Assembly (NCBI GenBank): GCA_017403155.1
Contig: JAFQOP010000012.1
Span: 79,126-143,125 of the forward strand
From: Clostridia bacterium
GTDB taxonomy: Bacteria; Bacillota; Clostridia; Oscillospirales; CAG-272
Direction of reading: 5' to 3'
DNA: 64,000 nucleotides
The position numbers were made by a program, and so were the translations under genes. How positions within the stretch are numbered: position 1 is the first letter of the stretch; the number at the start of each line of letters is the position of its first letter. Below the pieces are notes generated by a model, which ran no database searches, was not told the origin of the DNA, and worked only from the letters and a program-made list of their open reading frames with translations. Of this stretch, positions 38,403-55,648 are shown in pieces.

Positions 38403-38438
38403 TACAAAAAGCACTCCGCGAGGAGTGCTTTTTGTATT
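38401..38438. terminator. 17-bp perfect bidirectional terminator between nagA and GH2
   Basis: Arms 38401-38417 and 38422-38438 are exact complements with a GCGA loop. The nagA stop overlaps the left arm and the GH2 stop overlaps the right arm. Confidence 0.92.
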
Positions 38439-40902: not shown

Positions 40903-40911
40903 AAATACTCC

Positions 40912-41844
40912 TTATGCGACAAGCGTGGGCAAAAGATTCATAGAAACGAGGGCGCAAACCATTATCACGATACCGACGATATTCTTGACGGAAAGACGCT
41001 CCCTGAAGAAAACGGCGGAGGCAATCACACTCATAATAAGCACACTGGAATTATCGAGGGTATAAAGAACGGTGGTGGATATCTGCGGAATGAGAATAAC
41101 TATAAGGTTGATGGCAAGGGCAAACACTATGCTCGTCAGCGCGAGGTAGAGAAAAGATATCCTTGTCTGGCGGAAGGTGGCAAAAAAGCCCTTGCGATTC
41201 TTGATCAGAGAGGTGACGGTGGAGATGAGTGCAGCAAAGAGGAAGGTCAGAATGACCATCTCGTCGCGATTCGCCTCGCCGCCTGCCTCCTCTGTGCGCT
41301 GCTGGAGGGTGAGGAATATACCGTAGACTCCGTTACATACGCCAAGACCGAGGCAGGAGAGAATAAACGGGAGGCTGACACGCTGCTTTTCATCTCCCGA
41401 TGCGTCACTCTTGCCGCTAACAAGGTAGACGGCGGCGATAATGGCAACAATGGAAATAACGTTTATCAGAATTACGGGTGTGCTCGTCCAGCTATCCCAG
41501 CCGAGAATGAGCGCGGCAACGATGGGAAGAATTATTCCGCCGGCAAGGGAGAACATCATCAGTATTGAATAGGGGCCCGACTGCGAAGCCTTTACGATGA
41601 AGTAGTTATATCCGAAGAGGGCTACTGCATTGAGCGCTCCGATAAGAACCGTCCACCCGTTGAAGGTAAACCGGCAGAGGGAGAAGCAGAAAAAGGTGAT
41701 TACCGCGACGGTAAGACCCGATACCGTGGTAAGAGTTGCCGATGCGTTGTCGGGTTTGCCCGGGTATTTATCGGTATAAAGCTTGGTGAAAAGGGACTGA
41801 AGTGTGTAAAGAATGATAAGAAATGCTAAAAGCAGATACGGCAT
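40912..41844 (-). CDS. EamA/DMT-family transporter
   Basis: The 310-residue protein has ten hydrophobic segments in two five-TM halves with the DMT pattern (AVALFGYNYFIVKASQSGPYSI, then VLYTLDNSSVLIMSVIASAVFFRERLS near the C-terminus). Drug/metabolite exporters of this class move small molecules. Being cotranscribed with a GH2 hydrolase suggests a sugar or derivative, an inference only. The start lies downstream of a strong promoter and a palindrome. Confidence 0.82.
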   Translation of the reverse strand: MPYLLLAFLIILYTLQSLFTKLYTDKYPGKPDNASATLTTVSGLTVAVITFFCFSLCRFTFNGWTVLIGALNAVALFGYNYFIVKASQSGPYSILMMFSLAGGIILPIVAALILGWDSWTSTPVILINVISIVAIIAAVYLVSGKSDASGDEKQRVSLPFILSCLGLGVCNGVYGIFLTLQQRTEEAGGEANRDEMVILTFLFAALISTVTSLIKNRKGFFATFRQTRISFLYLALTSIVFALAINLIVILIPQISTTVLYTLDNSSVLIMSVIASAVFFRERLSVKNIVGIVIMVCALVSMNLLPTLVA

Positions 41845-41880
41845 AAATATTCTCCTTGAGCTAGAAACGGATTAATTATC

Positions 41881-41898
41881 CAAGTCAAAATCAACTTG
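41881..41898. promoter_or_regulatory. Palindrome at the start point of the EamA-GH2 operon
   Basis: CAAGT and ACTTG arms are separated by 8 bp and sit where transcription should begin (about seven bases past the -10). Position and symmetry fit a repressor operator; no regulator gene is adjacent. Confidence 0.4.
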
Positions 41899-41927
41899 AT
41901 TTTATCAAATTGAGTGGCGGCTGTCAA
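41899..41927 (-). promoter_or_regulatory. Promoter of the EamA-GH2 operon
   Basis: Minus-strand TTGACA (41922-41927), 17 bp, TAAAAT (41899-41904). Confidence 0.82.
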
Positions 41928-42082
41928 TAGACTCGGCAATTTTATTGTAAATAAAATTCAAAGCCTCAATATGCGATCAGGAGGGCTTTTTTCCTTGGTT
42001 TGAGATTTTTTGTCGAAAAATATAACAAAACAAACAATTATACCGCAAAGGAACAAATTTAGTGGTAGCAAGGATTTTGAAC

Positions 42083-42122
42083 ACAAAAAAGGCAGGCGCC
42101 GAGCTTTTCGGTGTCTGCCTCA
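42083..42122 (-). terminator. Terminator after degV
   Basis: Stem AGGCAG..GCCGA / TCGG..CTGCCT with a few mismatches lies just past the degV stop and is followed on the minus strand by six T. Confidence 0.75.
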
Positions 42123-42131
42123 TTGTCGAGC

Positions 42132-42968
42132 TTATTTTCCTGACACGAATATATAGCCGAAGGCACCCGGTCCCCAGTGGCAGGAGATCGCGGGATCCAG
42201 CTCATCGTATGCTATCATGGCACCGTGATACCTTGTATCGGTCATCTCAACGAGCTTATCCAGGTTTGCCGCATCGTAGGTAAATGAGGGTACGATGGGA
42301 TAGCTTACGTCACAATTATTGTCGGCAAGATATTTGTTGATTGCGATCATCGCGTTGCGCTTGCCACGCTCCTTGCTTATTACGAAGACCTTGCCATCTG
42401 TCACAGAATTTATTCCGATAAGTGGCTTGAGCTGGAGGATGCTGCCAAACACCCACGCCGCACGGCTGAGTCTGCCGCCCCTATGGAGATACTCGAGGGT
42501 GTCGGGGATGGCAACAACGCGGATACGGGGCACAAGCGAGCAAAGGATATCTACAACCGTATCGACGTCCTCATCAAGGTGCTTTAACGCCTCCATAGCA
42601 AGAATACGGACTCCACCCACGGCTGTCCTCGAATCCACAACTCTCACTTTCGGGTCATCCTTAAAGAAGCCCGATATTGCATTATAGGTGCCCGATATGC
42701 CCGAGGAGATGGTTATTATTATAACGCTGTCGCCGCGGTCGGTATATTTCTTCACGCGTGCCCGGACGTCTCCAAGCTCGGGAAGGGATGTTGCCGGGAA
42801 CTGCTTTTCCTCTATAAGCGCCTTATAAAACTCGGCAAAGCCGAGATCAACTCCGTCGAGGTATTCCCTGCACCCGATTCGTATTTTAAGAGGAAGAATC
42901 TCAACACCGAGCGCTGCTGCCTCCTCCGTTTTTATACTGCTGCCAGAATCTACAAAAATCTTTATCAT
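42132..42968 (-). CDS. DegV-family fatty-acid-binding protein
   Basis: The 278-residue protein starts IKIFVDSGSSI and contains the family motifs ATSLPE, ISSGISGTYNA, VVDSRTAVGG and LEYLHRGGRLSRAAW. DegV/FakB proteins bind a fatty acid and present it to the FakA kinase, supplying acyl phosphate to phospholipid synthesis. No fakA is in the window. Own promoter and terminator. Confidence 0.92.
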   Translation of the reverse strand: MIKIFVDSGSSIKTEEAAALGVEILPLKIRIGCREYLDGVDLGFAEFYKALIEEKQFPATSLPELGDVRARVKKYTDRGDSVIIITISSGISGTYNAISGFFKDDPKVRVVDSRTAVGGVRILAMEALKHLDEDVDTVVDILCSLVPRIRVVAIPDTLEYLHRGGRLSRAAWVFGSILQLKPLIGINSVTDGKVFVISKERGKRNAMIAINKYLADNNCDVSYPIVPSFTYDAANLDKLVEMTDTRYHGAMIAYDELDPAISCHWGPGAFGYIFVSGK

Positions 42969-43115: not shown

Positions 43116-43538
43116 TCAATCCTTCTCTATCTCTCTGATATTTCTTACCAGAGCGAGCGGATAGACGAACACGGATACTATCGCACCAACTATTATTGCC
43201 AAAATCGCGTATATAACACCGAGGATGAGGCCGATTATGAGGAGTAGCAGCTTTACGGTAAGAAGCCAGATTATGCCGTCGAGGTCGAGTGTGAGAACGA
43301 GACCGGGAAATTTGACAAAGCCCAACAAGAATATCTCAAGCATAAGCTTACCGATCATATTGCTACCAAGGATAAGGCAGGATACAAGAGTAAATGCAAC
43401 GACGCCTGCTATCGAGTAGATAAGCATATTGGTGGCGCTGCCCGTTTGGATCCAGAATACAATACCGAGTGTGATACCTGCTGCAAGAAGCATACCGCCA
43501 AATACGAAGGAGAGAATCCTTCTTCTTGCAAAGTTCAT
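43116..43538 (-). CDS. Four-TM membrane protein, unrecognised
   Basis: From ATG 43538 (AAAGGAAC upstream) the 140-residue protein begins with a basic N-terminus (NFARRR) and has four hydrophobic segments covering nearly the whole length, ending in a charged tail. No residues inside the membrane suggest a transporter class. It has its own regulated-looking promoter with a palindrome over the -10. Function unknown. Confidence 0.7.
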   Translation of the reverse strand: MNFARRRILSFVFGGMLLAAGITLGIVFWIQTGSATNMLIYSIAGVVAFTLVSCLILGSNMIGKLMLEIFLLGFVKFPGLVLTLDLDGIIWLLTVKLLLLIIGLILGVIYAILAIIVGAIVSVFVYPLALVRNIREIEKD

Positions 43539-43571
43539 AGTATTTGTTCCTTTCTTGATTATTTGTATTTC

Positions 43572-43590
43572 CGTGTTATTATACAACACG
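43572..43590. promoter_or_regulatory. Palindrome over the -10 of the four-TM protein
   Basis: CGTGTT-N7-AACACG is a perfect 6-bp inverted repeat that straddles the -10 hexamer, a typical repressor position. Confidence 0.5.
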
Positions 43591-43606
43591 CATTAAGAAA
43601 AGTCAA
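43578..43606 (-). promoter_or_regulatory. Promoter of the four-TM protein
   Basis: Minus-strand TTGACT (43601-43606), 17 bp, TATAAT (43578-43583). Confidence 0.82.
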
Positions 43607-43777
43607 GCGGAGGTTTTATTTGACTCTGCCGAAAAAACAAAAAAGCGCGGTTTCTCGCCGCACTACAATTTCAGTATATCACAGGATAATGTGCCTTGTA
43701 AAGAGTTTTTTGTTCAAAGATAACAATTTCTACCTTTTTTACAAAAAATAATTGTAAATTACTTACAAATTGCCATA

Positions 43778-43806
43778 TTGCAATCGGTAAAAAAATGTGA
43801 TATACT
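43778..43806 (+). promoter_or_regulatory. Promoter of the structured non-coding RNA
   Basis: TTGCAA (43778-43783), 17 bp, TATACT (43801-43806). The first paired base of the RNA's 5' hairpin follows within a few bases. Confidence 0.75.
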
Positions 43807-43815
43807 GTAATCGAA

Positions 43816-43884
43816 GAAAGGAAGGTACGGTCCAATGAAAAAGTAACTTTCTCGATTCAAACGAAAGGAAGGTACGGTCCAATG
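43816..43884 (+). repeat. Duplicated 22-nt module in the non-coding RNA
   Basis: Two exact 22-nt copies start 47 nt apart. Each carries AAGGAAGG and ten bases later ATG, one codon, AAG, TAA, so each could be read as a three-residue mini-frame (MKK, MAK). Each copy is flanked by GAAAG on the left and CTTT on the right. Confidence 0.85.
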
Positions 43885-44233
43885 GCAAAGTAAGGTACCG
43901 ACTTTAAAACGAGGGTGAGACTAAATACGGTGTTTGGATGAAGCAACCGTTTAGGGCTTGCAAAACACGGCGGTGTTACGCATTTATATATAGTTTCCAT
44001 ACAGTATGCATACGACAAACAATCAGTGGCAAGTGGGAAACGGTTTAAAAAGACCCTCGGAAAGTCAAACGCATCAGTAAAAATCGCCCTATGCGAAATC
44101 AGTTTACGCCACAATAGGAGTTGTTCTCGCTTGAGAATTTAAAGATGTGTGTTGTTGACGGCAAAACGACGGAACGTAAGGCAGACTAAGAAAGAGAGGA
44201 TAACCAAAGGATGTTAGATACGAAGAGTGAACA

Positions 44234-44288
44234 TAAGTGACCCTTGATTGCAGTTCGACGATGCAGTCAAGGGTCACTTATTTTTTTA
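44234..44288 (+). terminator. Terminator of the non-coding RNA
   Basis: A 14-bp stem TAAGTGACCCTTGA / TCAAGGGTCACTTA continues with TGCA/TGCA pairing to a small loop and is followed by seven T. Confidence 0.93.
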
Positions 44289-44320
44289 TCGGGGAGCCGC
44301 AGGGCTTCTTTTTTTATTAT

Positions 44321-44674
44321 TCAGTCCTCGCGTGCTGTGAGAATTCCAACTGTATTCTCACTTCTGTTGTGGTGCTGCATGATCAAGTCCATCTCCTCAT
44401 CCGTGCAGGCGAAGAGGAGCTTGACCTCAACGTCCGACTTCAGAATATCGACCGAGGATATTATCCCTCTCACCCGTCGGTCGGATGAAGTGCCGAGCCA
44501 GACGTCTACCTCTACGTTGTCCGAGGAGTGGCTGCCGTCAAGATATCCGTAGTCAAGCGGATATATATAATCCTCGTATCTCGGGTGACAGCTCCCCTTA
44601 GGTCGGTCGACGACTATCCTATGCTTCTCTACGAGCTTGTCCAGAAGCTGCCAGAATTTCTCATTTTTATTCAT
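44321..44674 (-). CDS. Small inorganic pyrophosphatase-like protein
   Basis: From ATG 44674 (GGGAG upstream) the 117-residue protein reads DRPKGSCHPRYEDYIYPLDYGYLDG, then VDVWLG, matching family I pyrophosphatase strands with the YPLDYGYL loop. It is much shorter than the 170-220 residues of classical Ppa and lacks the downstream Asp-rich metal triad, so activity on pyrophosphate is doubtful. Such short forms are common in Firmicutes. Lies just past the non-coding RNA on the opposite strand. Confidence 0.7.
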   Translation of the reverse strand: MNKNEKFWQLLDKLVEKHRIVVDRPKGSCHPRYEDYIYPLDYGYLDGSHSSDNVEVDVWLGTSSDRRVRGIISSVDILKSDVEVKLLFACTDEEMDLIMQHHNRSENTVGILTARED

Positions 44675-44834
44675 ATCCGGTCTCCCTGTGTCTTTTCTGC
44701 CTGTCCTAAAATGATAGCACACTTTTTCCCCTTTGTCAACGGAGGCTCAACAAGGCTCGCGATACAGCTTGAGAAGCTACAAAAGCATGAGTAATAATCA
44801 AAAAAACACCCGTTGCATTGTGGGCTTGTTTAAT

Positions 44835-45053
44835 TTAATACCAAGCAACAGTACCAGAGCTTTTTTTGACATCGATTCCGCTGACTGCGTGAAAGGCATA
44901 GTATTTATCCGGATCCTTATCCGAGAGCTTAACGATACGTCCACGCTCGCCGTCCTTCTTAGAAATTATGCCAGGATTGCTTTCATCATCCTCCACGTAG
45001 TATTCATAAAAATATTCGTCGTTTTCAATATATAAGAGTTTATATCTTAACAT
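44835..45053 (-). CDS. Small acidic protein, unrecognised
   Basis: The 72-residue frame starts MLRYKLLYIENDEYFYEY, Tyr- and acid-rich. The start at 45053 has GGGTGAG close upstream; an ATG at 45086 in the same frame overlaps the preceding stop by eight bases and would give 83 residues. It is the last of a chain of small minus-strand genes (46879 to 44835) and is probably cotranscribed. Function unknown. Confidence 0.5.
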   Translation of the reverse strand: MLRYKLLYIENDEYFYEYYVEDDESNPGIISKKDGERGRIVKLSDKDPDKYYAFHAVSGIDVKKSSGTVAWY

Positions 45054-45078
45054 ATCTCTCACCCTTGCATTTTGATTA

Positions 45079-45702
45079 CTACTCATATTTTTTGAGCAGC
45101 TTTTCGAGCTTTGGTATGCATTCTTGCATCACGAGGCTAAAGCCCTTATCAAATTCGACTTCAATTGGCTCCCCATCCGCATTAAAAACCCATATCATGG
45201 AGGAAATGCAATCGTAGCACTCATACTCCTCGCATATATCGTCTCCAACCGAATAATCCTCTATCCATTCGGTGAGGTAGTCTATGCGCGTTTGTGCACT
45301 TGATTTTGCACAGGAGACGGCACAATTATATCCTTCGTCTGCCTTTGTTTTTTCCTCGATGGGAGAAAGCGATGCTTTAAATGCTGTTAACTCTTTAATA
45401 CAATCGACTATTATGGGCAAGGCTTTCTCGGCAACCTCTCTTTCCTCCTTCGTTTTCCGAGGCTTACCAAACGTATAATCCTCTATTCCCGCTAAGCAGA
45501 GCGCAAAGCCCAGCACGTCCCCCTGCGTTGCGCATTCCCTCATAAACTCGGTAATTCGCTTTAACGCCTCTGCCGACGTCCCGAAGTTGTCATGCATCTC
45601 CTGCGTGCCGGCAACAGTGGCAACAACTATCGCGTCATCGAGGCGAAAGCCCTTTTCCTTCCAAAGGTCAAGGAAGGACTCTACTGCTTCTTCATAAGTC
45701 AT
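45079..45702 (-). CDS. Soluble helical protein, unrecognised
   Basis: The 207-residue protein is acidic and mainly helical, with a cysteine cluster near the C-terminus (ICEEYECYDCISSM) and no TM segment or catalytic motif. Size, acidity and company resemble immunity proteins of polymorphic toxin or contact systems, but no toxin gene is adjacent. Function unknown. Confidence 0.55.
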   Translation of the reverse strand: MTYEEAVESFLDLWKEKGFRLDDAIVVATVAGTQEMHDNFGTSAEALKRITEFMRECATQGDVLGFALCLAGIEDYTFGKPRKTKEEREVAEKALPIIVDCIKELTAFKASLSPIEEKTKADEGYNCAVSCAKSSAQTRIDYLTEWIEDYSVGDDICEEYECYDCISSMIWVFNADGEPIEVEFDKGFSLVMQECIPKLEKLLKKYE

Positions 45703-45738
45703 TTTTGTGCTCCTCTTTTCTGCGTATAAATTCTGCTG

Positions 45739-46146
45739 TTAATAATAGAACGAAATTGCTTCCTTGACAATGCCGTCTCGCTGATAGGTATCAAAAAGAT
45801 GCTCTATCAGCCGCATTGCAATACAACCGATGCCGCAAGTTAAAATCTTATAGCAAAAACGGCTGTTTTCTACTTCTATTTTGCCCGAGGCAAGAAGTGC
45901 TTCGTAATCAACGGGGCGCACAATGCGCTTTGTTATCATCCGCTTGCGACCGCTTGACATTCTCTTCAGCTTTTCCCGTATTTCGGGCTCAAGGAGGGCG
46001 TCTTTGCAGATAGTGATTACTCCGTCATAAACTCTATCCTCGTTCCTATACCTTTTATCATTTAAGTTATACGGACAGTATTCGAATATCAGCATTTCCT
46101 CATCCTGCAATACCAGTCGGGCATCGCCACCAATTCCTATGCTCAT
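45739..46146 (-). CDS. Small soluble protein, unrecognised
   Basis: The 135-residue protein starts MSIGIGGDARLVLQDEEMLIFEY, a beta-rich opening, then a basic helix (KLKRMSSGRKRMITKRI). No known motif. It lies 36 bases after the preceding stop and 30 before the next in the same small-gene run. Function unknown. Confidence 0.55.
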   Translation of the reverse strand: MSIGIGGDARLVLQDEEMLIFEYCPYNLNDKRYRNEDRVYDGVITICKDALLEPEIREKLKRMSSGRKRMITKRIVRPVDYEALLASGKIEVENSRFCYKILTCGIGCIAMRLIEHLFDTYQRDGIVKEAISFYY

Positions 46147-46176
46147 CTTATTCCTCCATTTTATTCAAAGAACGCA

Positions 46177-46707
46177 TCACAAATCACTGTCATCAAATTC
46201 ATCAAAGGACTGCTCCGGTCGAAGACCGAAAAATCTTTTTAATGCAAGCTCTTCCATTTCCTTGCTTCCGTCAAGCACACAATGCATCGACCGACTCGCA
46301 CAGCTTACTCCCTCAAAGACGTCGATATATTTAATTTCATATTGCTCAACGTCGTTTCTCTCTCCGTTATTTATGTCAAAGACGAGCAAGTCCGCTCCGC
46401 TCGGCGACTTGCCGAGACTCGGCACTCCTTCAAAGAGCACTCCGTCGATAGTACGAAGCTTGACGCACTTGCCAACGTATTCCCGTATCGGGGCAATCTC
46501 GCTCTCCAGCGGCTCAATGCTCACGATATCATCCTCGCATAATTCGATATATTCCTTTTTGACGTTTTCAAGGCAGGCGTAGCATAAATAGGTGCCATCT
46601 TTACCGGTTTTGTAGATAAAGTGAACCCTGCCGCAAACAACGTTTCCACCAACGTCAGTTATTTCGACCCTTCTGCACTCTAGGTCACGACATTCCTTCA
46701 GCTTCAT
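46177..46707 (-). CDS. Protein with two Sm/SH3-like beta-barrel segments, unrecognised
   Basis: From ATG 46707 (GAGGAGG upstream) the 176-residue protein has two similar segments: CRRVEITDVGGNVVCGRVHFI (about 8-28) and GKCVKLRTIDGVLFEGVPSL (about 78-97), each resembling the first strands of an Sm/Hfq or SH3 barrel (hydrophobic-x-DG-x-hydrophobic-x-G). No other motif. The start lies inside the end of the small TM gene, so the two are coupled. Function unknown. Confidence 0.5.
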   Translation of the reverse strand: MKLKECRDLECRRVEITDVGGNVVCGRVHFIYKTGKDGTYLCYACLENVKKEYIELCEDDIVSIEPLESEIAPIREYVGKCVKLRTIDGVLFEGVPSLGKSPSGADLLVFDINNGERNDVEQYEIKYIDVFEGVSCASRSMHCVLDGSKEMEELALKRFFGLRPEQSFDEFDDSDL

Positions 46708-46879
46708 CCGCGCCATCCTCCTCTTCACTTTTTGCGAACATTCTTTTCGCTTGGAATATTGCGTCGAAGAGAAGGAGGAGCGCGCTTGCGCCGAGGGCTA
46801 TGCGAAGGGGGATGGTCAGTCCGAATATTGCGATTAAGACGTTAAGCACCGCTAATGAGATATAAAAAATTTTGTCCAT
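46685..46879 (-). CDS. Small two-TM membrane protein
   Basis: The 64-residue protein has two hydrophobic segments (residues 4-20 and 26-44) and a cytoplasmic tail, KRMFAKSEEEDGADEAEG, that turns strongly acidic. AAAGGAG precedes ATG. It leads the small-gene run and overlaps the next start by 23 bases. A -10-like ATTATA (minus-strand TATAAT) is at 46920-46925, but no good -35. Function unknown. Confidence 0.6.
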   Translation of the reverse strand: MDKIFYISLAVLNVLIAIFGLTIPLRIALGASALLLLFDAIFQAKRMFAKSEEEDGADEAEGMS

Positions 46880-46961
46880 AGTTTCAGGCTCCTTTTTTTG
46901 TTTTTTTAACTACGCCCTAATTATAGTCTAATATGTGTCCGTTAAATAGGACTCGATCAGA

Positions 46962-47004
46962 AGGATAAAAAAAGGAGCAAGTCAAGGTGACTTGCTCCTT
47001 TTGC
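46962..47004 (-). terminator. Terminator after the STAND-HD gene
   Basis: A 14-bp stem AAAGGAGCAAGTCA / TGACTTGCTCCTTT with loop AGG and a minus-strand T run, 30 bases past the stop. Confidence 0.9.
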
Positions 47005-47031
47005 GTAGAACAAAAAAACTGACAGCTTGGG

Positions 47032-49800
47032 CTATTTATTTTCCTTCAGGTGCTCCTTGACAAGTCGAATCTGCTGTGCCAATTGGCTAATCTTCTGGAA
47101 CTCGGCGTTGTCTAAAATTGCATCGCGCACTATATTGCCGCCGATTTGAGTTGATGTATTCAAGTATCTTGCCCAGCCGTCCCAATCCTCTTTGTTGAAC
47201 AGGGCGGGCTTTTGTGCCACGTAGCAGCAATACTGATATACGGCTTGAATATGGTCAATATCCTTTGCGATTCTCGCATTTATATTATTCGAGCCCGCGG
47301 TCTCGGAGGCATTCCAAAGGGAAATGAGGTTTTCGGCAGTCTTCGCGGGGAAAAGCTGCTTTATATAACTCGCGACTGCCGACTTCTCTATTTCCTTTTG
47401 CTCGGGGCTCTTTTCTCCCGGGACTATATCCCCGATTATTGCCTCGCCGACATCATGAACAAGCAACAGTCTGAGAATCTGCTCCTTATCATATCTTCCC
47501 TCAAGCTCGCTGTCGCCGTCGTATTCCTCGGGCAAATAGATTGATGCCATCAGCCACGCGTTATACATATGGGTGGATATGCTCTCTGCGTCGTTCACGC
47601 CGCGCTGAAGCCACCCTGTGCGCGCCTTACTCAGGCGCGTGGTCAACTCGAAGTATCGAGGGTTCTTGTTAAGGCTGCGCTCAAAGCCGTCGCGGATACG
47701 GTAGAAATAGCTCATGACCTCGCGATCCAAGCCACACTGCCTCTTTTCAGAAAGCTCTAAAAAGCTGTTCAGGAAAAGCAGGCACTTTTCCTGCATAGAG
47801 CTCATGTTGTCGAAGCACCTTGCCGACCTTTTGGTAATCAGCTCACAGTATGTAAACATATTTAACGTTATCATACAAACCTTTTTGCCAAAGTCATTCT
47901 CATTTTCAAGGTCAGCCTCCAGCTCCAAGCCGAGCTTTCGCAACGTGTTTACTCCCTTATGGGGTAAATCTGTCAGAACCACCCCGATCAGGGATTTGTG
48001 TCTATCCTTTTCTTCAACCGTTACGTCACCGTAATAATCCAGATGATATCCCACGTTGACATCGGCAGCTACGCGGTCAGCAATCAATAGCTTCAGGTAC
48101 TCATTCAGGGCACCCTTATTTCCGCGCTTGATCATATCCACCAGTACTGTGCGAAGGAGGAAATGGTTTATTCTTACGTCATCACCCTCGGGGCTTTCTG
48201 CCCTGGATTTTGAAACAGCCTCCTCAAAGCACGACTTAAGGCAACCGAGTATTTCACCGACAACGTCCTGCTGCCTTTTTTTCAGAATTCTCTCGGCATC
48301 CGAGGGAACTCTTCCAATCAAATAGATAAGCTGCGCTATTGTTTTTTCTCCGAATGAGCTAGCACCCGTCGGAGAGAGCTTGTCAAGGTTGTTGTAAACG
48401 TATAGAACCAGCTTCACCCATTCATCGGGAGTCAGCATGGCTCTGAGGAATCTGTTGATGGAATTTGTAAGCGCGACGTCGGGCAGCAAGGCTTCTGTGC
48501 CACCGTAAAACGCCTGCTTCAAGCAATTGTGATAGTATTTTGCAACGAGGTAGTCTAAAAGGCTTCTGTGCTCTACTGCAAATTTCCACCAGATCGACCT
48601 TCTCGGGAAAGCACTTACGCTCTCGTCGTAGTCATAAAGAAAGGCCTCGTGAATGCATTCCTCATCTACGTCCGCTCCAAGATATTTCGCATAAATCTGG
48701 GCGAGGGTTTCACTGATTCTCTTATCAACAGCCTTTGCATCTACGTAGTTCAGTATCTCCTTCAGATTGTAGGCATCCAGCGCAACGAATCTCAAATCAA
48801 TAAGCTGATCACGCACGTCCTTGGGATCTCTTTTGTTGCATCTAAAAATATCTATGCAGTTGCCTATGAATTCCTCCGATTCGCGCTCTCTGTCCAGGTT
48901 CAGAGAAGAGATTTTAATTACGTTTTCGTAATTCTTTTCCCAGTTGGCGAGGTCTCCGCAATATTTTCTGTTTGTTGCTGCAATTAAGGTATCCACGCCC
49001 GTGACAATCCAACATTTATTGCTTCTGTTGTTTATAAAGCTGGTTATCCTGTTATACACATCCTCAAGTCCGCAGACAAAGCTACGCACATTATCAAAAA
49101 TGATGATGGGAGCCTTGTTATCCTTGTTTGCGAGTCCTACGATATTTCCGAGCTTATTCAAAAGTCCGTCTACCGTGAGCTCCGTGCCGTAGGCAAGCCT
49201 CACAGTGCCGTTGTTTTCGTACCTTGCCATATCTATATAGATGGGTAAGATCGTGGCTTGCTCGGTACTATCGAGGTTTACCGAGTGTTCATCTCTCTCA
49301 CACGCTTTGTGATAAAGATACAGATATATATACTGCAGAAGTCTGTTTTTGTATGAGCCTACCGGACCTCTTAAAAGAAGAAGCTGCTTATTTTCAATCT
49401 GCTCGCGCTTTTCTATAACGTCGAGAACAAACTGCCCGAGGTGCATCCCTTCCTTCAACACCGTCAGTCGTCCGTCCTTTGCCGTGTTGTCGTTCAGGGC
49501 TGCGTGACACTTAACTGTATGGATATCCTTATATATTCGGGAAAAACGCTCTATCTCGAAGCCGAGATCTTTTACAAGCTCGGCAGAGCTCTTGCCGCTG
49601 TTGACGTTGAGATACTCCTTTATGCTCGAGCAAAAATGACTCCCCGAAATGGCATGCGCAAGCTGCTCAAACGCATCGATTTTTTCACTTGCGAAAAAAT
49701 CCACTGAATTGGATGAAGAATTATTATTCGGCTCCTTATTCTGACTGAACCGATTTTTCAGACTATTTTGAAGTGCGGTGGGGTCGGTTTGTGGCTTCAT
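47032..49800 (-). CDS. STAND-like NTPase fused to a C-terminal YfbR/HDDC2-type HD nucleotidase
   Basis: The 922-residue protein has an Asn/Ser-rich N-terminal tail, then a P-loop at 145-152 (GPVGSYKN) with hydrophobic flanks, a Walker B-like PIIIFDN at 231-237 and a sensor-like WIVTGVD at 264-270. A helical region with WKFAVEHRSLLDYLVAKYY (406-423) looks like the NACHT/STAND post-ATPase helices. Residues about 726-900 match HDDC2/YfbR 5'-deoxynucleotidases: TGWLQRGVNDAES, His 744, His 782-Asp 783, Glu 786, Asp 791 and Asp 847, so the metal site looks complete. The P-loop ends in Asn where Ser/Thr is usual. Cotranscribed with a two-TM partner; reads like an antiviral effector-sensor (inference). 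Confidence 0.72.
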   Translation of the reverse strand: MKPQTDPTALQNSLKNRFSQNKEPNNNSSSNSVDFFASEKIDAFEQLAHAISGSHFCSSIKEYLNVNSGKSSAELVKDLGFEIERFSRIYKDIHTVKCHAALNDNTAKDGRLTVLKEGMHLGQFVLDVIEKREQIENKQLLLLRGPVGSYKNRLLQYIYLYLYHKACERDEHSVNLDSTEQATILPIYIDMARYENNGTVRLAYGTELTVDGLLNKLGNIVGLANKDNKAPIIIFDNVRSFVCGLEDVYNRITSFINNRSNKCWIVTGVDTLIAATNRKYCGDLANWEKNYENVIKISSLNLDRERESEEFIGNCIDIFRCNKRDPKDVRDQLIDLRFVALDAYNLKEILNYVDAKAVDKRISETLAQIYAKYLGADVDEECIHEAFLYDYDESVSAFPRRSIWWKFAVEHRSLLDYLVAKYYHNCLKQAFYGGTEALLPDVALTNSINRFLRAMLTPDEWVKLVLYVYNNLDKLSPTGASSFGEKTIAQLIYLIGRVPSDAERILKKRQQDVVGEILGCLKSCFEEAVSKSRAESPEGDDVRINHFLLRTVLVDMIKRGNKGALNEYLKLLIADRVAADVNVGYHLDYYGDVTVEEKDRHKSLIGVVLTDLPHKGVNTLRKLGLELEADLENENDFGKKVCMITLNMFTYCELITKRSARCFDNMSSMQEKCLLFLNSFLELSEKRQCGLDREVMSYFYRIRDGFERSLNKNPRYFELTTRLSKARTGWLQRGVNDAESISTHMYNAWLMASIYLPEEYDGDSELEGRYDKEQILRLLLVHDVGEAIIGDIVPGEKSPEQKEIEKSAVASYIKQLFPAKTAENLISLWNASETAGSNNINARIAKDIDHIQAVYQYCCYVAQKPALFNKEDWDGWARYLNTSTQIGGNIVRDAILDNAEFQKISQLAQQIRLVKEHLKENK

Positions 49801-49816
49801 TTTGCTTTATCTCCGC

Positions 49817-50701
49817 TTAATCTTTTTTTGCTTTTAATATTCTCTCTATCTTGTCAATACGGCTTTTAATGTCGCATTTTTCCTCTGATATCTTCTTGCC
49901 CAGATACTCCAATACTGCCACATCATCATTATGTATACCGATGTAATTCGGCCACTGAGCATCCTCCAAGGTACAATCCTCCAGCTCATAGCTGCAGCAT
50001 TTAGCAAAGAAAATCAAGGCGCACTTATGCTCTCTTTTCAAGGGTTGTATAGTGGTATGCTGATTCATACCGTATTCATCTCTGGCATTTACAATTATGT
50101 TTGAAACGGTTTCTGCATTTCGCATCGTTGCCGAAAGATAAACGTTCAGGTTAGCTATATCGGTTGCCAAATCACATATTACCTTGGAAAGCGCAACCCT
50201 TTTTTCCCAGAAGAAATAGCGCGGGAGATTGTGAATTATCGACATCGACTCATGAGAGCCTATTATTCCGTCGAGAATCGGGGTCGGCAACGTATCACCC
50301 GGCATGACTCCGTCTATCGAGCCGATTTTTTCTGTCATGCTTCTAATTTCATCAAGCTCCGCCCACAGCACGCTCGTCAAAGCATCATACCTTTTCAGGT
50401 GGATAAGTCTTGCGACTATTATCGAATCTAACAGAGTAGCAATCAAAATACCGAAAAGACCTCCAAAGAAGTCCGGCAACAGCATCAGATACTCACTGCT
50501 GTCACCTGCAGCCAGCTCTCCCGAAAAGCCCTCCCACGTTGAAAAGAGAGAATATACGAGCTTTAAAATCCAAGGAATTACAACCGTGGAAATACAGAAT
50601 ATAAGAATCAGGTATGCTATAAGGACAGCTCTGTGCCAAAAAACACTGTAATGCTTTATCTCTTCGTTCTGTTTATTCTGCTTATCCTTTTCATTCGACA
50701 T
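49817..50701 (-). CDS. Two-TM membrane protein, partner of the STAND-HD protein
   Basis: The 294-residue protein has a charged N-terminus, TM segments at about 25-47 and 78-100, and a mostly helical cytoplasmic domain of 190 residues that ends in a coiled-coil-like basic tail (KSRIDKIERILKAKKD). No enzyme motif is seen. GGGGTGAG lies six bases before the ATG. It is promoter-proximal and 16 bases ahead of the STAND-HD gene, so the two form one unit. Family unrecognised. Confidence 0.65.
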   Translation of the reverse strand: MSNEKDKQNKQNEEIKHYSVFWHRAVLIAYLILIFCISTVVIPWILKLVYSLFSTWEGFSGELAAGDSSEYLMLLPDFFGGLFGILIATLLDSIIVARLIHLKRYDALTSVLWAELDEIRSMTEKIGSIDGVMPGDTLPTPILDGIIGSHESMSIIHNLPRYFFWEKRVALSKVICDLATDIANLNVYLSATMRNAETVSNIIVNARDEYGMNQHTTIQPLKREHKCALIFFAKCCSYELEDCTLEDAQWPNYIGIHNDDVAVLEYLGKKISEEKCDIKSRIDKIERILKAKKD

Positions 50702-50729: not shown

Positions 50730-50758
50730 ATTATACCACACTTGTCATTTCCAGTCAA
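50730..50758 (-). promoter_or_regulatory. Promoter of the two-TM / STAND-HD cassette
   Basis: Minus-strand TTGACT (50753-50758), 17 bp, perfect TATAAT (50730-50735). A constitutive-looking promoter. Confidence 0.85.
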
Positions 50759-50927: not shown

Positions 50928-51356
50928 ATGATTTATACGGAATTAACCAAAAAGGCACTGAAGCTATGCTTCGAGGTACATAAAAACCAGCTTGACAAAT
51001 CGGGGATGCCTTACGTTTTTCATCCGTTCTATCTGGCAACGCAAATGTCGGACGAGATATGCACCGTTTGTGCCCTCCTGCACGACGTTGTGGAGGACTC
51101 GGACTATACCCTTGACGATATACAAAAGCTGGGCTTTCCGTCAGAGGTGACGGACGCATTGTCAATGCTGACACACGATGCCGCCACCCCCTATATGGAA
51201 TACGTCAGAGAGATACGCACCAACCCGATAGCAAAAAGGGTCAAGCTCGCAGATCTTATGCACAACAGCGACTTGTCACGGCTGGACACCGTTGACGAAA
51301 AGGCACTGAAAAGGATAGAAAAATACAAGATGGCAATAGAGCTTTTGTCCGAATGA
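50928..51356 (+). CDS. Small HD-domain protein, SpoT/MESH1-like
   Basis: The 142-residue protein has KSGMPYVFHPFYLA, ALLHDVVEDSDYT and VKLADLMHNSDLSRL, the His/Asp metal ligands and the layout of the (p)ppGpp hydrolase HD domain found in SpoT and MESH1. No synthetase or regulatory domain. Hydrolysis of (p)ppGpp or a related nucleotide is expected. It diverges from the STAND-HD cassette, with both promoters in one 225-bp spacer. GGGG-type ribosome site present. Confidence 0.85.
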   Translation: MIYTELTKKALKLCFEVHKNQLDKSGMPYVFHPFYLATQMSDEICTVCALLHDVVEDSDYTLDDIQKLGFPSEVTDALSMLTHDAATPYMEYVREIRTNPIAKRVKLADLMHNSDLSRLDTVDEKALKRIEKYKMAIELLSE

Positions 51357-51476: not shown

Positions 51477-53267
51477 CTATTCAAAAACAGATATGTTTCC
51501 TATTCTGGCGCATCTGTCGACATATTCCTCGATGTGAGAATTCATGCCGACGGTTTCTGTAACCTCAAGCATTATATATCTTGCCTCACTCGGGGGGAAG
51601 GTCTCTATGTTTTCCTCTCCCAGTGTGCGGCAATTAACCCGCTTTACAAGGGTGTATTCCTCACCGTCGCAGCTCAGGTAGATGTTATAACGAGAGAGAA
51701 GGCTTGGTGACTCGTCGTGGGTATTCCAGTCGGGAGCCTTGCTCGAATCTCGCACCACCCGGTGGGGATAATAGCCAATAGCCGAAATTCTTCGGCTGCT
51801 TTTCATATCGATAATGATTTTGGGAGTTTTTGTTTTCGCGGTATAGCTATTATACGGATTGCCGTCGATAAGTTCGGGCGCGGATTCACCGTCTGCTGTC
51901 GCTGTGAATGTGCTCATATCAACGGGAGTGAGAGTCGGCGGCGCAACTCCTTCATCAAAAGGTCTGCCGCACCAAACGGGCATGGACCATGTTTTTCTTC
52001 CGCATCCGTCAACAAGACGCAGATAGAAATATCTTGCGGTGTCTGACTTTATTTCAAGCTCCGTAATTCTGTCGGTTATACTGCAGCGATGAGCCACCTC
52101 TCCGTAGTCGGTAATTATCTCGCAGAGGGTCGGCATGGCAGACATATCCGGCTCAAACAGGTCGAGCTCAATTCTGAAGCGGTAGGTATCTGTCGGCGCA
52201 AGCTCCGTCGGAGCAACGCTTCCGTTTACCGAATATTTCAGCTTTACCCTACCCGATTCGGTAGCATAGAATCGGCAGGCACGCAGAGCCTCGTGAAATG
52301 CCTCGCGGCTCTTTTCCTTCGCTATTACCACGGTTTTTCCCGGGCAAAAGCCGAAGCCCCAATCGGGTCCGTGGCAGTCGCCTGAGCAGGTTGTGCTAAG
52401 TCTGAAGCCCGCATCAAGCGCCGAGGATATTGCATACTCGTGAAGGATATTTTCCTTAAACGGCGTGCCGCTGCCCATTTCTATGCCTCGCACGGTCCTT
52501 AGCATAATATCGGTGGCTCTCTTTGGAAAGTCAAAATTCCATATTCCGGGTGTGCTATACCCCACAACGTGAGGATGGGCAAAAATCGCAACGGGCATGG
52601 GAGAATAAGTCATCTCTCGCTCAAACGCTTCCCAATCGCTTGTCGCGGCGTAGCCCGCAGAGCCAATCACCACAAGCTCGCCCGAGCGTCTGTGCTCTAT
52701 CCCGAATCTATCGGGCTCAACGTATTCTACCTCCGACTCCGCGCCCGCCATAACTACGGGCGAAAGAGTGTGCTCGGCATACTTAAAGCCTCGATAAAAA
52801 TCCCTGTCCGAGGTGACGGCGGCATGATCTGAAATTACTGTGAGATCAAGGGCACCGTCTGCCGCAACTGCACTGATATAATCGGGAATATCCTCCGTTT
52901 TATGGAGGGCAAAGAGGTCGTGATCATGCTCCGTCGAGGTATGCGCGTGCAGGTCTGCTCTGTAATAATTGAGATTTCCGTCAGAAATCAGCATTTTGTG
53001 GGATGTGACCCTTGCCTCGTATTTTTTGCCGAGATACTCTGCGCAAACAAAGCCGCATCCCTCACCCCAGACCGAAACAAGTGCCACGTTTCTCGGAGAG
53101 AGCTCGTCGCCACAAAAGGCTCTCACTCCGGCTACCTCACCGTCGGCGGACCATCTGACATCAGACTCGCTGTTTATACCGTCACCGACAAGCTCAATCG
53201 GCAAAACGTCTCCAACGTAGGTTTCTATGTAATTCTTCGATAGGCTTATTACACCCTCGTTACGCAT
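51477..53267 (-). CDS. PHP-domain phosphoesterase with C-terminal discoidin-like domain
   Basis: The 596-residue protein has an N-terminal beta-domain (1-95), then a PHP metal site: RADLHAHTSTEHDHD, VISDHAAVTSD, AHPHVVG and SGDCHGPDWG. After an Ig-like stretch, residues about 450-596 form an F5/8-type-C (discoidin) domain (ELIDGNPYNSYTAKT, IIIDMKSSRRISAIGYYP). PHP proteins are phosphoesterases or nucleases; discoidin domains bind carbohydrate. No signal peptide seems present, which is odd for such a domain set. Start at 53267 has GGGAGTG upstream. Confidence 0.8.
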   Translation of the reverse strand: MRNEGVISLSKNYIETYVGDVLPIELVGDGINSESDVRWSADGEVAGVRAFCGDELSPRNVALVSVWGEGCGFVCAEYLGKKYEARVTSHKMLISDGNLNYYRADLHAHTSTEHDHDLFALHKTEDIPDYISAVAADGALDLTVISDHAAVTSDRDFYRGFKYAEHTLSPVVMAGAESEVEYVEPDRFGIEHRRSGELVVIGSAGYAATSDWEAFEREMTYSPMPVAIFAHPHVVGYSTPGIWNFDFPKRATDIMLRTVRGIEMGSGTPFKENILHEYAISSALDAGFRLSTTCSGDCHGPDWGFGFCPGKTVVIAKEKSREAFHEALRACRFYATESGRVKLKYSVNGSVAPTELAPTDTYRFRIELDLFEPDMSAMPTLCEIITDYGEVAHRCSITDRITELEIKSDTARYFYLRLVDGCGRKTWSMPVWCGRPFDEGVAPPTLTPVDMSTFTATADGESAPELIDGNPYNSYTAKTKTPKIIIDMKSSRRISAIGYYPHRVVRDSSKAPDWNTHDESPSLLSRYNIYLSCDGEEYTLVKRVNCRTLGEENIETFPPSEARYIMLEVTETVGMNSHIEEYVDRCARIGNISVFE

Positions 53268-53311
53268 AAGAGCACTCCCATTTTTAACCAATAAATTACC
53301 ATTATACCGGT

Positions 53312-53340
53312 ATTATATCACCGTTGATTTTGGGTGTCAA
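53312..53340 (-). promoter_or_regulatory. Promoter of the PHP-discoidin gene
   Basis: Minus-strand TTGACA (53335-53340), 17 bp, TATAAT (53312-53317). A palindromic TACCGGTA lies at the start point. Confidence 0.84.
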
Positions 53341-53358
53341 GAAACAAAGCAGCAATTT

Positions 53359-54531
53359 CTATATTCTTGCTACTCCCGTTTTAACTGCCGCATCGTAGAC
53401 AGCCTTTGCCACGGTCCTTCCTACTCGCTCGTCGAATGCCTTGGGAATTATATATTCCTCGCAGAGCTCGCTATCGCTTACAAGGGAGGCAATAGCGAAA
53501 GCCGCCGCCCTTTTCATTTCTTCGTTTATTTCGCTTGCCCTTGCATCAAGTGCACCGCGGAATATGCCCGGGAAAGCAAGCACGTTGTTTATCTGATTGT
53601 TGAAATCGCTTCTGCCCGTGCCGACGACTGCGGCACCTGCGTCAAGAGCAAGCTCGGGAGCGATTTCCGGCACAGGATTTGCCATCGGAAAGACTATCGC
53701 TCTGTCAGCCATTGATTCTATCATTTCTTTGCTTACGATGTTTGGCGCGGAAACACCGATAAACACGTCTGCGCCAACCATAGCCTCTGCAAGAGTGCCG
53801 TCGAGCTTATCCTTGTTCGTTATGCCTGCAAGCTCTGCCTGAGGCTCTGTCATTCCAGCCTTGCCGTCAAGGAGCGTGCCTATCTTGTCGCAAACCACAA
53901 GATTTTCTACCCCCATTCCGATGAGGAATTTGGCAATAGCTATACCTGCGCTGCCTGCACCGTTTATAACTATTCGAGCGGTGGAAAGCTCCTTTCCAAC
54001 AACCTTAAGTGCGTTTATAAGTGCCGCACCCAGAACGATAGCCGTTCCGTGCTGGTCGTCGTGAAAAACGGGAATGTCACATATTTCCTTCAGCCGCCTT
54101 TCAACCTCAAAGCAGCGAGGCGCGGAAATGTCCTCGAGATTTATGCCGCCAAAGCTTCCGGAAATAAGATAGATAGTACGCACAAGCTCGTCGACGTCCT
54201 TTGTTTTTATGCATAGAGGAATAGCGTCAACGTCTCCGAACGTTTTGAATAGAAGTGCCTTTCCTTCCATAACGGGCATACCTGCAACGGGGCCAATATC
54301 TCCGAGCCCCAGCACAGCCGTTCCGTCGGTGATGACCGCAACGGTATTCCATCTGCGGGTCAACAGATACGACTTGTTTTCGTCCTTTTGTATCTCAAGA
54401 CAGGGGGTTGCCACTCCCGGTGTATAGGCAAGCGACAGGTCTTCCTTACTTTTTACCTCTACCCTTGCCGTTACCTCAATTTTGCCGCCCCATTCATAAT
54501 GCTTTTTAAGAGATTCCTCTGCGTAGTTCAT
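53359..54531 (-). CDS. NAD(P)-dependent malic enzyme (short form)
   Basis: Oxidative decarboxylation of malate to pyruvate. The 390-residue protein has [53 protein letters not shown] and the Rossmann loop [12 protein letters not shown]. Length is that of the small bacterial form without phosphotransacetylase domain. It starts four bases after a type-2 malate dehydrogenase gene, so both act on malate in one operon. Confidence 0.93.
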
Positions 54532-54535
54532 TCTC

Positions 54536-55648
54536 TTACTCCTCCCAGGGAAATACGTACTGCGTGAGACCGAGCTCGTTTCTTACTTTTATCATCTCCG
54601 CCTGGACCGACTCGTTTATCGGAACACCGGTCTCGCGGCGGGAGAGCCATATTTCATATTCCTTCTCGCCTGCGGTGTAGATTCTGCTCTCGCCGGGCGC
54701 TTTTTTCGATGCTCTGATTGCACGGAGGATATCGCCCGCCTTCCTTCGGCAGACCTCTTCACCCATAAAATGCTCGGTATCGATAGCAATAAAGAAATGA
54801 CCGAGGTGATAGGGGCGGATATTTCCGTTTTCGTCCTTGCCGTCCAGGTCCTTTCCGTACATACCGTCCTGCAATACGGCGCTGAGCATCTCAACAACGA
54901 GAGCAAAGCCATAGCCCTTGTAGCCGCCGAGCGCCTCACCGATACCTCCGAGGGTGGTGAGAGCGGCAGTGCCGTTGCGGATTTTCTTAAGTGCAACGCC
55001 GGCGTCTCCCTCCACGGCATTTCCGTCAATATCTATGATAGTACCCGGGTGGACAGGCTCGCCTATACGCTCGTAATACTCAACCTTGCCGTTTTGAGTG
55101 ATTGAAGTGGCGCAGTCAAAGATAAAATCAAAGGGCTCGTCGGTGGGAATACCAACCGTGTACGGGTTTGTGCCAAACATTCCCTCAACGCCAAAGGTGG
55201 GCGCAACCGATGGGCGCGCATTTGTACCCGTCATACCGATACAGCCTGCCTTCGTTGCCATGGTGGCATAATAGCCTGCTATACCGTAGTGGCAGGAATT
55301 TCGGACTGCAACCATACCCATACCGTACTTTTTTGCCTTCTCTATCGCCATCGTCATTGCACGATGACCTATCACCTGCCCCATTCCGTGGTGACCGTCA
55401 ACAACTGCGGTGGTGGGGGTTTCCTTTATTATCTCAAAATCAGTGACGGGCTGCTGTATTCCCGCCTTTATCCTATCGATATAAATGGGCTTAAAGCGGT
55501 TGCAGCCGTGCGACTCGATACCTCTCTTATCGCTCTCCAGCAGGACGTCGGTGCATATCTCAGCGTCCTCTCGCGGCACCCCTGCACCGACGAAGGCATC
55601 GGTTATAAAGGCGTAGGCACAGTCCCAGTCAAGATTCATTTTTGGCAT
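54536..55648 (-). CDS. Type-2 malate/L-lactate dehydrogenase (Ldh2/YlbC family)
   Basis: NAD(P)-dependent 2-hydroxyacid dehydrogenase with the Ldh2 fold. The 370-residue protein shows SHGCNRFKPIYIDRI, VDGHHGMGQVIG, VRNSCHYGIAGYY, TGTNARPSVAPTFG, FGTNPYTVGIP and GYKGYGFALVVEM. Substrates include malate, lactate, ureidoglycolate and sulfolactate; the malic enzyme behind it favours malate. The ATG has GGGGAG upstream. First gene of the operon; divergent from a DeoR regulator. Confidence 0.9.
   Translation of the reverse strand: MPKMNLDWDCAYAFITDAFVGAGVPREDAEICTDVLLESDKRGIESHGCNRFKPIYIDRIKAGIQQPVTDFEIIKETPTTAVVDGHHGMGQVIGHRAMTMAIEKAKKYGMGMVAVRNSCHYGIAGYYATMATKAGCIGMTGTNARPSVAPTFGVEGMFGTNPYTVGIPTDEPFDFIFDCATSITQNGKVEYYERIGEPVHPGTIIDIDGNAVEGDAGVALKKIRNGTAALTTLGGIGEALGGYKGYGFALVVEMLSAVLQDGMYGKDLDGKDENGNIRPYHLGHFFIAIDTEHFMGEEVCRRKAGDILRAIRASKKAPGESRIYTAGEKEYEIWLSRRETGVPINESVQAEMIKVRNELGLTQYVFPWEE

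What the first reader, a model, noticed from the sequence alone, without database searches (positions are those of the whole stretch)
47032..50701. Two-gene cassette: two-TM protein plus STAND-like NTPase fused to an HD nucleotidase, candidate undescribed defence system
One protein joins a STAND/NACHT-like NTPase (P-loop 145-152, Walker B 231-237, NACHT-like helices near 406-423) to a C-terminal HDDC2/YfbR-type HD domain with all metal ligands visible (H744, H782, D783, E786, D847). Its cotranscribed partner has two TM segments and a helical cytoplasmic domain. STAND proteins in bacteria are mostly antiphage sensors with a fused effector, and nucleotide depletion by HD or deaminase enzymes is a known antiviral effector strategy. 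The HD domain at the C-terminus, where sensors normally sit, is unusual. I know of no named system with this pair.
Basis: partly seen in the sequence, partly recalled or inferred. Interest (0 to 1): 0.88.

Follow-up and report, generated by a model that had tools for sequence, protein, structure and literature searches.

The report
NLR-like immune switch with deoxynucleotidase
This bacterial gene pair looks like a rare relative of animal immune switches (NLR proteins) that carries a built-in enzyme domain of the kind that clips DNA building blocks, a pairing that recurs in very distant bacteria and an archaeon while the presumed killing part is swapped, so it may guard cells against viruses in a way not yet described.

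Summary
Both genes are real and look like one transcription unit (promoter-like site 50758-50730, terminator-like hairpin 47002-46970). The 922-aa protein is a diverged NACHT (NLR-type STAND) protein with a C-terminal helical region bearing NxGYHLxYYGD and a fused HD_3 domain of the HDDC2/YfbR 5'-deoxynucleotidase type. The 294-aa partner has two TM helices and no detected relatives. The NACHT assignment rests on one collinear profile match (E 3e-12); Walker A and B are atypical, Walker A in the same way in a congener. NACHT-YYGD genes are followed by overlapping HD_3 genes in Thermococcus and two Chloroflexota, and by a frame-split one in a Thermoanaerobaculales MAG. A species of the same genus has TIR-NACHT-HD_3 in one protein. 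N-termini vary (TM helices, TIR, hydrolase, HTH) while HD_3 stays in these six; two of the four contexts that could be read hold restriction, TIR or AbiE genes. The fourth metal ligand aligns with D849, not D847. Nine completed literature searches found no such pair. Defence activity and HD function are inferred.

The parts
50730..50758 (-). sigma-70-like promoter TTGACT-17-TATAAT with TG before -10
   Evidence: 11 of 12 matches; 14 promoter-like sites found in the region against a mean of 7.6 in shuffles, so a consensus match, not proof
49817..50701 (-). 294-aa partner: N-terminal two-TM protein with a predicted helical remainder; presumed effector or membrane anchor
   Evidence: only insignificant matches far below cut-offs in Pfam (E=0.069) and NCBIfam (E=0.016, 0.083), none in PADLOC or PHROGs; model mean pLDDT 49, too low for a fold search
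50573..50629 (-). TM helix 1 (residues 25-43)
   Evidence: hydropathy
50432..50488 (-). TM helix 2 (residues 72-90)
   Evidence: hydropathy
47032..49800 (-). 922-aa diverged NACHT - YYGD region - HD_3 fusion protein
49345..49368 (-). atypical Walker A, residues 145-152 GPVGSYKN; pattern GxxGxxKNxLLQ shared with the same-genus TIR protein
49081..49116 (-). atypical Walker B, residues 229-240 (holds IIIFDNVRS)
48532..48582 (-). NACHT-associated helix motif, residues 407-423 (FAVEHRSLLDYLVAKYY; relatives FLHKSFHEYYVAKYI)
48025..48057 (-). NVGYHLDYYGD, residues 582-592: signature of the YYGD region
47197..47625 (-). HD_3 domain, residues 726-868; R727, W730, H744, H782, D783, E786, D791, D849
46970..47002 (-). 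intrinsic terminator-like hairpin (15 pairs, T tail)
   Evidence: 7 such sites found in the region against a mean of 4.0 in shuffles

Best explanation
This is an NLR-like (NACHT-type STAND) conflict switch. A diverged NACHT module couples a regulatory/sensing half (helical YYGD region plus a 5'-deoxynucleotidase-type HD_3 domain) to an exchangeable effector, which here is the separate two-TM protein. Proposed working: at rest the HD_3 site and YYGD region hold the NACHT module closed; a change in deoxynucleotides during infection (for instance dNMPs from breakdown of host DNA, or a phage-made nucleotide), bound or hydrolysed by HD_3, frees the NACHT module to assemble, and the assembly opens or clusters the two-TM protein in the membrane, halting the cell. 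Shown by sequence: domain identities, gene order, recurrence of NACHT-YYGD with HD_3, and exchange of the N-terminal part. Inferred: antiphage function (about 0.8), TM protein as effector (about 0.6), HD_3 as sensor or gate rather than main effector (about 0.5).
For: HD_3 is fused here and in a same-genus protein TIR-NACHT-HD_3, and is a separate overlapping next gene in Thermococcus (17 nt), Dictyobacter (14 nt) and a Ktedonobacteraceae MAG (10 nt); in a Thermoanaerobaculales MAG the next HD_3 gene is split over two frames. Of 119 loci from the motif scans, 10 carry a NACHT-YYGD ORF (E<=1e-4); the 3 loci with HD_3 are all among these 10 and 0 are among the other 109 (chance 4e-4; two of the three are close kin, 55% identical, so the figure flatters). 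NACHT identity: collinear profile match over 454 columns, E=3.1e-12. N-terminal exchange: TIR_2 E=1e-21, XRE HTH, alpha/beta hydrolase, two TM helices in Thermococcus from an upstream start with a Shine-Dalgarno; DUF4062 in a branch with another HD gene. Thermococcus 2TM-NACHT + HD_3 and the window's 2TM + NACHT-HD_3 have the same kinds of modules split in different places. Defence neighbours: AbiE and restriction genes, Mrr-type and ThsB-like TIR genes. The TIR homologue has N instead of the fourth HD ligand, easier to fit with a binding role than with a catalytic effector. STAND proteins: effector N-terminal, sensor C-terminal (passages of PMC12169576).
Against: No defence genes recognised around the window copy or the TIR copy (Pfam and PHROGs or by eye, PADLOC was not run on these neighbours). 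The metal and most substrate residues of a working deoxynucleotidase are present in the window, so HD_3 could be an effector. Of the 10 scan loci with NACHT-YYGD, 3 have a different, dGTPase-like HD gene and 4 show none, so HD_3 is not universal. The Walker motifs are atypical, so nucleotide switching itself is uncertain. The TM protein has no detected relative and does not align with the Thermococcus TM segment.
Confidence: 0.5

Rival explanations
1. HD_3 is the effector: on activation it dephosphorylates dNMPs and starves phage DNA synthesis; the TM protein or N-terminal domain localises or senses, or is a second effector.
For: Residues that inactivate E. coli YfbR when changed have counterparts: H744/H782/D783/D849, W730, D791 and probably R727 (YfbR residues from passages of PMC8177086). 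dNTP-hydrolysing HD enzymes are known antiphage effectors (abstract of PMC12265719). A dGTPase-like HD gene accompanies another NACHT-YYGD branch.
Against: Effector-type domains (TIR, hydrolase, TM) occupy the usual effector end while HD_3 is kept; the TIR homologue has lost one metal ligand; cleaving dNMPs is a weak way to deplete dNTPs (inference).
Confidence: 0.3
2. HD_3 is an off-switch or guard: it constantly destroys a nucleotide that activates the NACHT module, and inhibition of HD_3 by phage triggers the effector.
For: HD_3 kept with varying effectors; Clover shows that a nucleotide signal restrains a defence HD enzyme (abstract).
Against: No dedicated nucleotide-signal synthase was recognised in the neighbours that were annotated or scanned; neighbours of the Ktedonobacteraceae and Thermoanaerobaculales copies were hardly scanned (one ORF), and an AbiEii nucleotidyltransferase with its own AbiEi lies divergent beside the Thermococcus copy. 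Ligand loss in the TIR homologue.
Confidence: 0.15
3. A STAND transcriptional or metabolic regulator of nucleotide salvage rather than defence.
For: Two relatives begin with an XRE-type HTH; the window and same-genus copies lie among metabolic or unknown genes.
Against: Other relatives begin with TIR, hydrolase or TM helices; sporadic distribution (1 of the other 68 same-genus genomes, many incomplete); Thermococcus and Dictyobacter neighbours are restriction/TIR/AbiE genes; no salvage gene was recognised.
Confidence: 0.1
4. Residues 1-400 are a decaying or non-NACHT domain and the fusion is a degenerate relic.
For: Atypical Walker A and B; window residues 1-398 alone match the NACHT profile only weakly (E=0.033, prob 1.5); low-confidence model.
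Against: Same GxxGxxKNxLLQ in a 26%-identical intact homologue, which speaks for conservation; whole-length match once that homologue is added; 922-aa open frame between promoter-like and terminator-like sites.
Confidence: 0.1

Closest known systems
bNACHT antiphage proteins (bacterial NLR-related, e.g. bNACHT25)
   Same: NACHT core with effector at one end and helical sensor region at the other; the NACHT profile of the relatives also matches NLRP3/NLRC4. NCBIfam antiphage models EruA and DS8 touch the NACHT part of two relatives, far below their cut-offs
   Different: No described bNACHT with an HD_3 domain or HD_3 partner found; PADLOC gives nothing for the window or Thermococcus proteins and only weak partial matches for the NACHT relatives; atypical Walker motifs; effector in trans
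HDDC2 / YfbR 5'-deoxynucleotidases (Pfam HD_3, YfbR-like)
   Same: Fold family, ligands, W/D and probably R substrate residues
   Different: Fused to, or coupled with, a NACHT protein
Clover and other dNTPase defence systems
   Same: HD phosphohydrolase tied to phage defence and nucleotide signals (abstract and passages of PMC12265719)
   Different: CloA is a dGTPase with a nucleotidyltransferase partner; no NACHT; different HD family
Thoeris / TIR and DUF4062 (Swarozyc) systems
   Same: Relatives here use TIR or DUF4062 as N-terminal domain; the same-genus TIR matches PADLOC TIR models
   Different: The window copy has neither; the switch is a NACHT-YYGD-HD_3 module
AVAST (Avs) STAND proteins
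   Same: Tripartite STAND logic (recalled, and passages of PMC12169576)
   Different: No TPR sensor recognised; NACHT rather than Avs NTPase; no PADLOC match

Membership tests
NACHT-type STAND NTPase | sequence homology of the NTPase plus C-terminal helical region to NACHT proteins | tested here: met
   (E=3.1e-12 over 454 columns); weak for residues 1-398 alone
NACHT-type STAND NTPase | canonical Walker A GxxxxGK[ST] (motif recalled) | tested here: not met
   GPVGSYKN; same-genus homologue GLPGCAKN, so the departure is shared
NACHT-type STAND NTPase | Walker B hhhhDGxDE (motif recalled; seen in the relatives) | tested here: not met
   IIIFDNVRS
bNACHT antiphage proteins | protection against phage | not testable with these tools
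   needs plaque assay
bNACHT antiphage proteins | match to a curated model of a known system | tested here: not met
   922-aa protein: no PADLOC or NCBIfam family at E<=1
HD_3 / YfbR-like 5'-deoxynucleotidase | H...HD...D metal motif | tested here: met
   H744, H782, D783, D849
HD_3 / YfbR-like 5'-deoxynucleotidase | R18, W19, D77 of YfbR | tested here: inconclusive
   W730 and D791 by alignment with HDDC2 and spacing, R727 likely but offset by two residues; no direct alignment with YfbR was printed
HD_3 / YfbR-like 5'-deoxynucleotidase | dNMP phosphatase activity | not testable with these tools
   needs enzyme assay
dGTPase-type defence (Clover) | dGTPase-family HD and nucleotidyltransferase partner | tested here: not met
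   HD_3, no dGTPase model matched; partner is a TM protein
Thoeris | TIR (ThsB) plus ThsA (definition recalled) | tested here: not met
   no TIR in the window pair

The most novel reading that the evidence does not exclude
A new class of NLR-like immune receptors in bacteria and archaea whose sensor is an enzyme-derived deoxynucleotide-binding (HD_3 5'-deoxynucleotidase) domain: the receptor monitors the deoxynucleotide state of the cell, a sign of phage takeover of DNA metabolism, and fires interchangeable effectors (membrane protein, TIR NADase, hydrolase).
Probability: 0.35. Interest if true: 0.9.

Novelty: new variant of a known kind. Interest (0 to 1): 0.72.

Why it matters
What bacterial NLR-like proteins sense is an open question (the 2025 bNACHT25 paper calls the stimuli challenging to discover; passage). 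A receptor with a recognisable small-molecule enzyme domain at its sensor end, kept while effectors change, makes that question directly testable with defined nucleotides. It also ties dNTP metabolism, known as an effector target, to the NLR switch.

Tried and rejected
Scans for close relatives of the window proteins found nothing: genome contigs (14 pattern matches, none a relative), viral contigs, NTPase part in phages, TM protein in plasmids and phages. Viral contigs with the Thermococcus protein and with alignments found nothing. The Thermococcus NACHT in phages gave only NACHT-core hits in 2 Vibrio elements.

Synteny: 13 of 14 same-genus genomes tested have the malic enzyme, 1 of 14 the DegV gene. 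I fetched 5 of the 13 malic loci; they share too little with the window to show an empty site, so whether 43116-50701 is an insert stays undecided.

Structure: the 922-aa model (8 rows) and the TM protein both have mean pLDDT 49. Foldseek of the former gave no match at E<=0.001; rank 1 was HDDC2 (3e-3), rank 6 YfbR (0.17), with large helical proteins between them. I draw nothing from it.

Considered and dropped: the HD_4 neighbour (50928-51356) as a part: divergent. Own-family scan with the fused profile: 10 of 226 genomes besides the own one matched, all within profile columns 1-162 (the TIR end), so none counts as a relative of the whole and I dropped these rows; G738 is not listed in that draw. 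Thermococcus NACHT in plasmids: 45 of 46 records matched up to residue 458 at most, taken as generic NACHT, not followed.

Papers: nine searches completed found no report of a NACHT-HD_3 pair in the listings, abstracts and passages I saw. The library lacks most subscription papers; I did not see the original bNACHT survey. Of six papers opened I saw passages only (PMC8195603, PMC12169576, PMC11592144, PMC8177086, PMC13174449), or outline, abstract and passages (PMC12265719); none whole.
Full report
Observation. The two ORFs are present at the stated places. The 294-aa gene ends 16 nt before the 922-aa gene starts. A good sigma-70-like promoter match lies upstream at 50758-50730 and a 15-pair terminator-like hairpin downstream at 47002-46970, so they look like one transcription unit; consensus scans are not proof. 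The cassette has 45% G+C against 51% in the two flanking segments measured (38437-42968, 51477-55648) and 49% in the whole window.

Domains. Pfam gives HD_3 at 726-868 (E=1.3e-21), weaker HD and YfbR-like matches below their cut-offs, and nothing else; PADLOC gives nothing for either protein. The best solved relative is human HDDC2. Alignment with HDDC2 shows the metal ligands to be H744, H782, D783 and D849; entry 4l1j has A in place of the aspartate that aligns with D849. W730 and D791, and probably R727, correspond to W19, D77 and R18, which a review says inactivate YfbR when changed (passages of PMC8177086).

The NTPase. No library recognises it in the window protein. A tblastn of residues 1-720 against plasmids gave one record of 72,556: the NACHT protein of Thermococcus barophilus pTBMP1, matching 406-592 (E=6e-5). 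Its next gene, overlapping by 17 nt, is an HD_3 protein, in a plasmid region that also holds AbiEi/AbiEii and a restriction endonuclease gene. The shared stretch carries HxSxxDYxxAKY and NxGYxLxYYGD. With four such NACHT proteins as a profile, the window protein matches at 409-596 (E=5e-10), but its residues 1-398 alone only weakly (E=0.033, probability 1.5, P-loops in register). When the same-genus homologue (below) is added, one collinear match runs from the P-loop to beyond YYGD: 454 columns, E=3.1e-12. I therefore call it a diverged NACHT. Walker A (GPVGSYKN) and Walker B (IIIFDNVRS) are non-canonical.

Relatives. Of these 119 loci, 10 carry an ORF that matches the NACHT-YYGD queries at E<=1e-4. 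Three of the 10 have an HD_3 ORF next to it: Ktedonobacteraceae MAG, Dictyobacter aurantiacus (these two Chloroflexota, name recalled), Thermoanaerobaculales MAG (there the HD_3 gene is split over two frames). None of the other 109 loci has one at E<=1e-3 (chance of all 3 falling among the 10: 4e-4; the two Chloroflexota are 55% identical, so the three are not independent). Three of the 10 (Clostridiales, Acetatifactor and Methanothrix MAGs) have instead a dGTPase-like HD gene (below curated cut-offs), a DNA-methylase-like gene and a B12-radical SAM gene ahead of a DUF4062-NACHT (for the Clostridiales one this shows only in the longer stretch L146; for Methanothrix the DUF4062 label rests on alignment with the Acetatifactor protein). 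Four show no HD: for L021 I searched further downstream with five HD queries and found none, for L038 the 3' side is cut off, for L046 and L108 only the 8-kb locus was examined.

Same-genus homologue. Of 69 genomes of the genus, 2 match: the own one and G738. The G738 gene encodes TIR_2 (E=1.2e-21), the NACHT-like region and HD_3 (E=4.2e-17) in one 991-aa protein, 26% identical to the window's. It shares GxxGxxKNxLLQ at the P-loop. Its HD has N at the position of D849, and its YYGD motif is itself diverged. Elsewhere the protein is rare: of 295 genomes of the order 3 matched, two of them only by the HD end; of 398 of the phylum only the own one, for both the NTPase part and the TM protein; the YYGD profile found 2 of 201 (phylum of Dictyobacter, both already known) and 1 of 245 (class of the Clostridiales MAG, already known). 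Many of the same-genus genomes are incomplete.

Swappable N-termini. XRE HTH in the two Chloroflexota, alpha/beta hydrolase in the Thermoanaerobaculales MAG, DUF4062 in the radical-SAM branch, TIR in G738. In Thermococcus the annotated start probably misses an upstream ATG with a good Shine-Dalgarno; from there the protein begins with two TM helices. So Thermococcus has 2TM-NACHT + HD_3 and the window 2TM + NACHT-HD_3: the same kinds of modules joined at different places, though the TM segments show no sequence similarity.

Context. Dictyobacter: the genes after HD_3 are an Mrr-like type IV restriction enzyme (E=2e-67) and a ThsB-like TIR protein (E=2e-49). Thermococcus: AbiE, restriction. Window and G738: no recognised defence neighbours, mostly metabolic or unknown genes; PADLOC was not run on them. 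The Ktedonobacteraceae and Thermoanaerobaculales neighbourhoods were not informative.

Mechanism. In bacterial NACHT proteins the N-terminus is the effector and the C-terminus the sensor (passage of PMC12169576). Here what varies is the N-terminal or separate part, what stays in the six members is YYGD plus HD_3. The simplest reading is that HD_3 senses, gates or edits a nucleotide signal and the TM protein acts on the membrane. The intact metal site in the window leaves room for HD_3 as co-effector. Which of these holds is not decided by sequence.

Novelty. A known kind (NLR-like STAND defence) in a new variant. Nine literature searches (listed under Tried and rejected) found no NACHT-HD_3 pair; the library lacks most subscription papers, so this is not proof of absence in print.

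Noticed in passing
L146 8544-14965 (-), L147 900-7362 (+), L047 1907-7914 (-): Overlapping four-gene operon: B12-binding radical SAM, dGTPase-like HD, N6/N4 DNA-methylase-like protein, DUF4062-NACHT-YYGD, in Clostridiales, Acetatifactor and Methanothrix MAGs. A second HD family tied to the same NACHT branch; one dedicated paper search and the passages of the DUF4062 paper showed no description.
   Followed up: partly
L021 5124-7733, L046, L108, L038: NACHT-YYGD proteins (three actinobacterial, one from a Sulfuritalea MAG) without a visible HD gene; L038 begins with an alpha/beta-hydrolase-like stretch by eye and is cut at its 3' side.
   Followed up: partly
L006 4669-4854: The Thermococcus pTBMP1 NACHT gene is probably annotated with too late a start; the upstream ATG adds two TM helices.
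   Followed up: yes
window 43116-46879: Seven small ORFs in a stretch of 44% G+C with no PHROGs match and only insignificant Pfam matches, next to the cassette.
   Followed up: no
window 50928-51356: Small HD_4-like gene divergent from the cassette; Pfam match below the curated cut-off.
   Followed up: no
G000:C2:8498-8836: The own genome has a separate TIR-like protein (366-aa open frame) matching the TIR end of the fused-protein profile.
   Followed up: no
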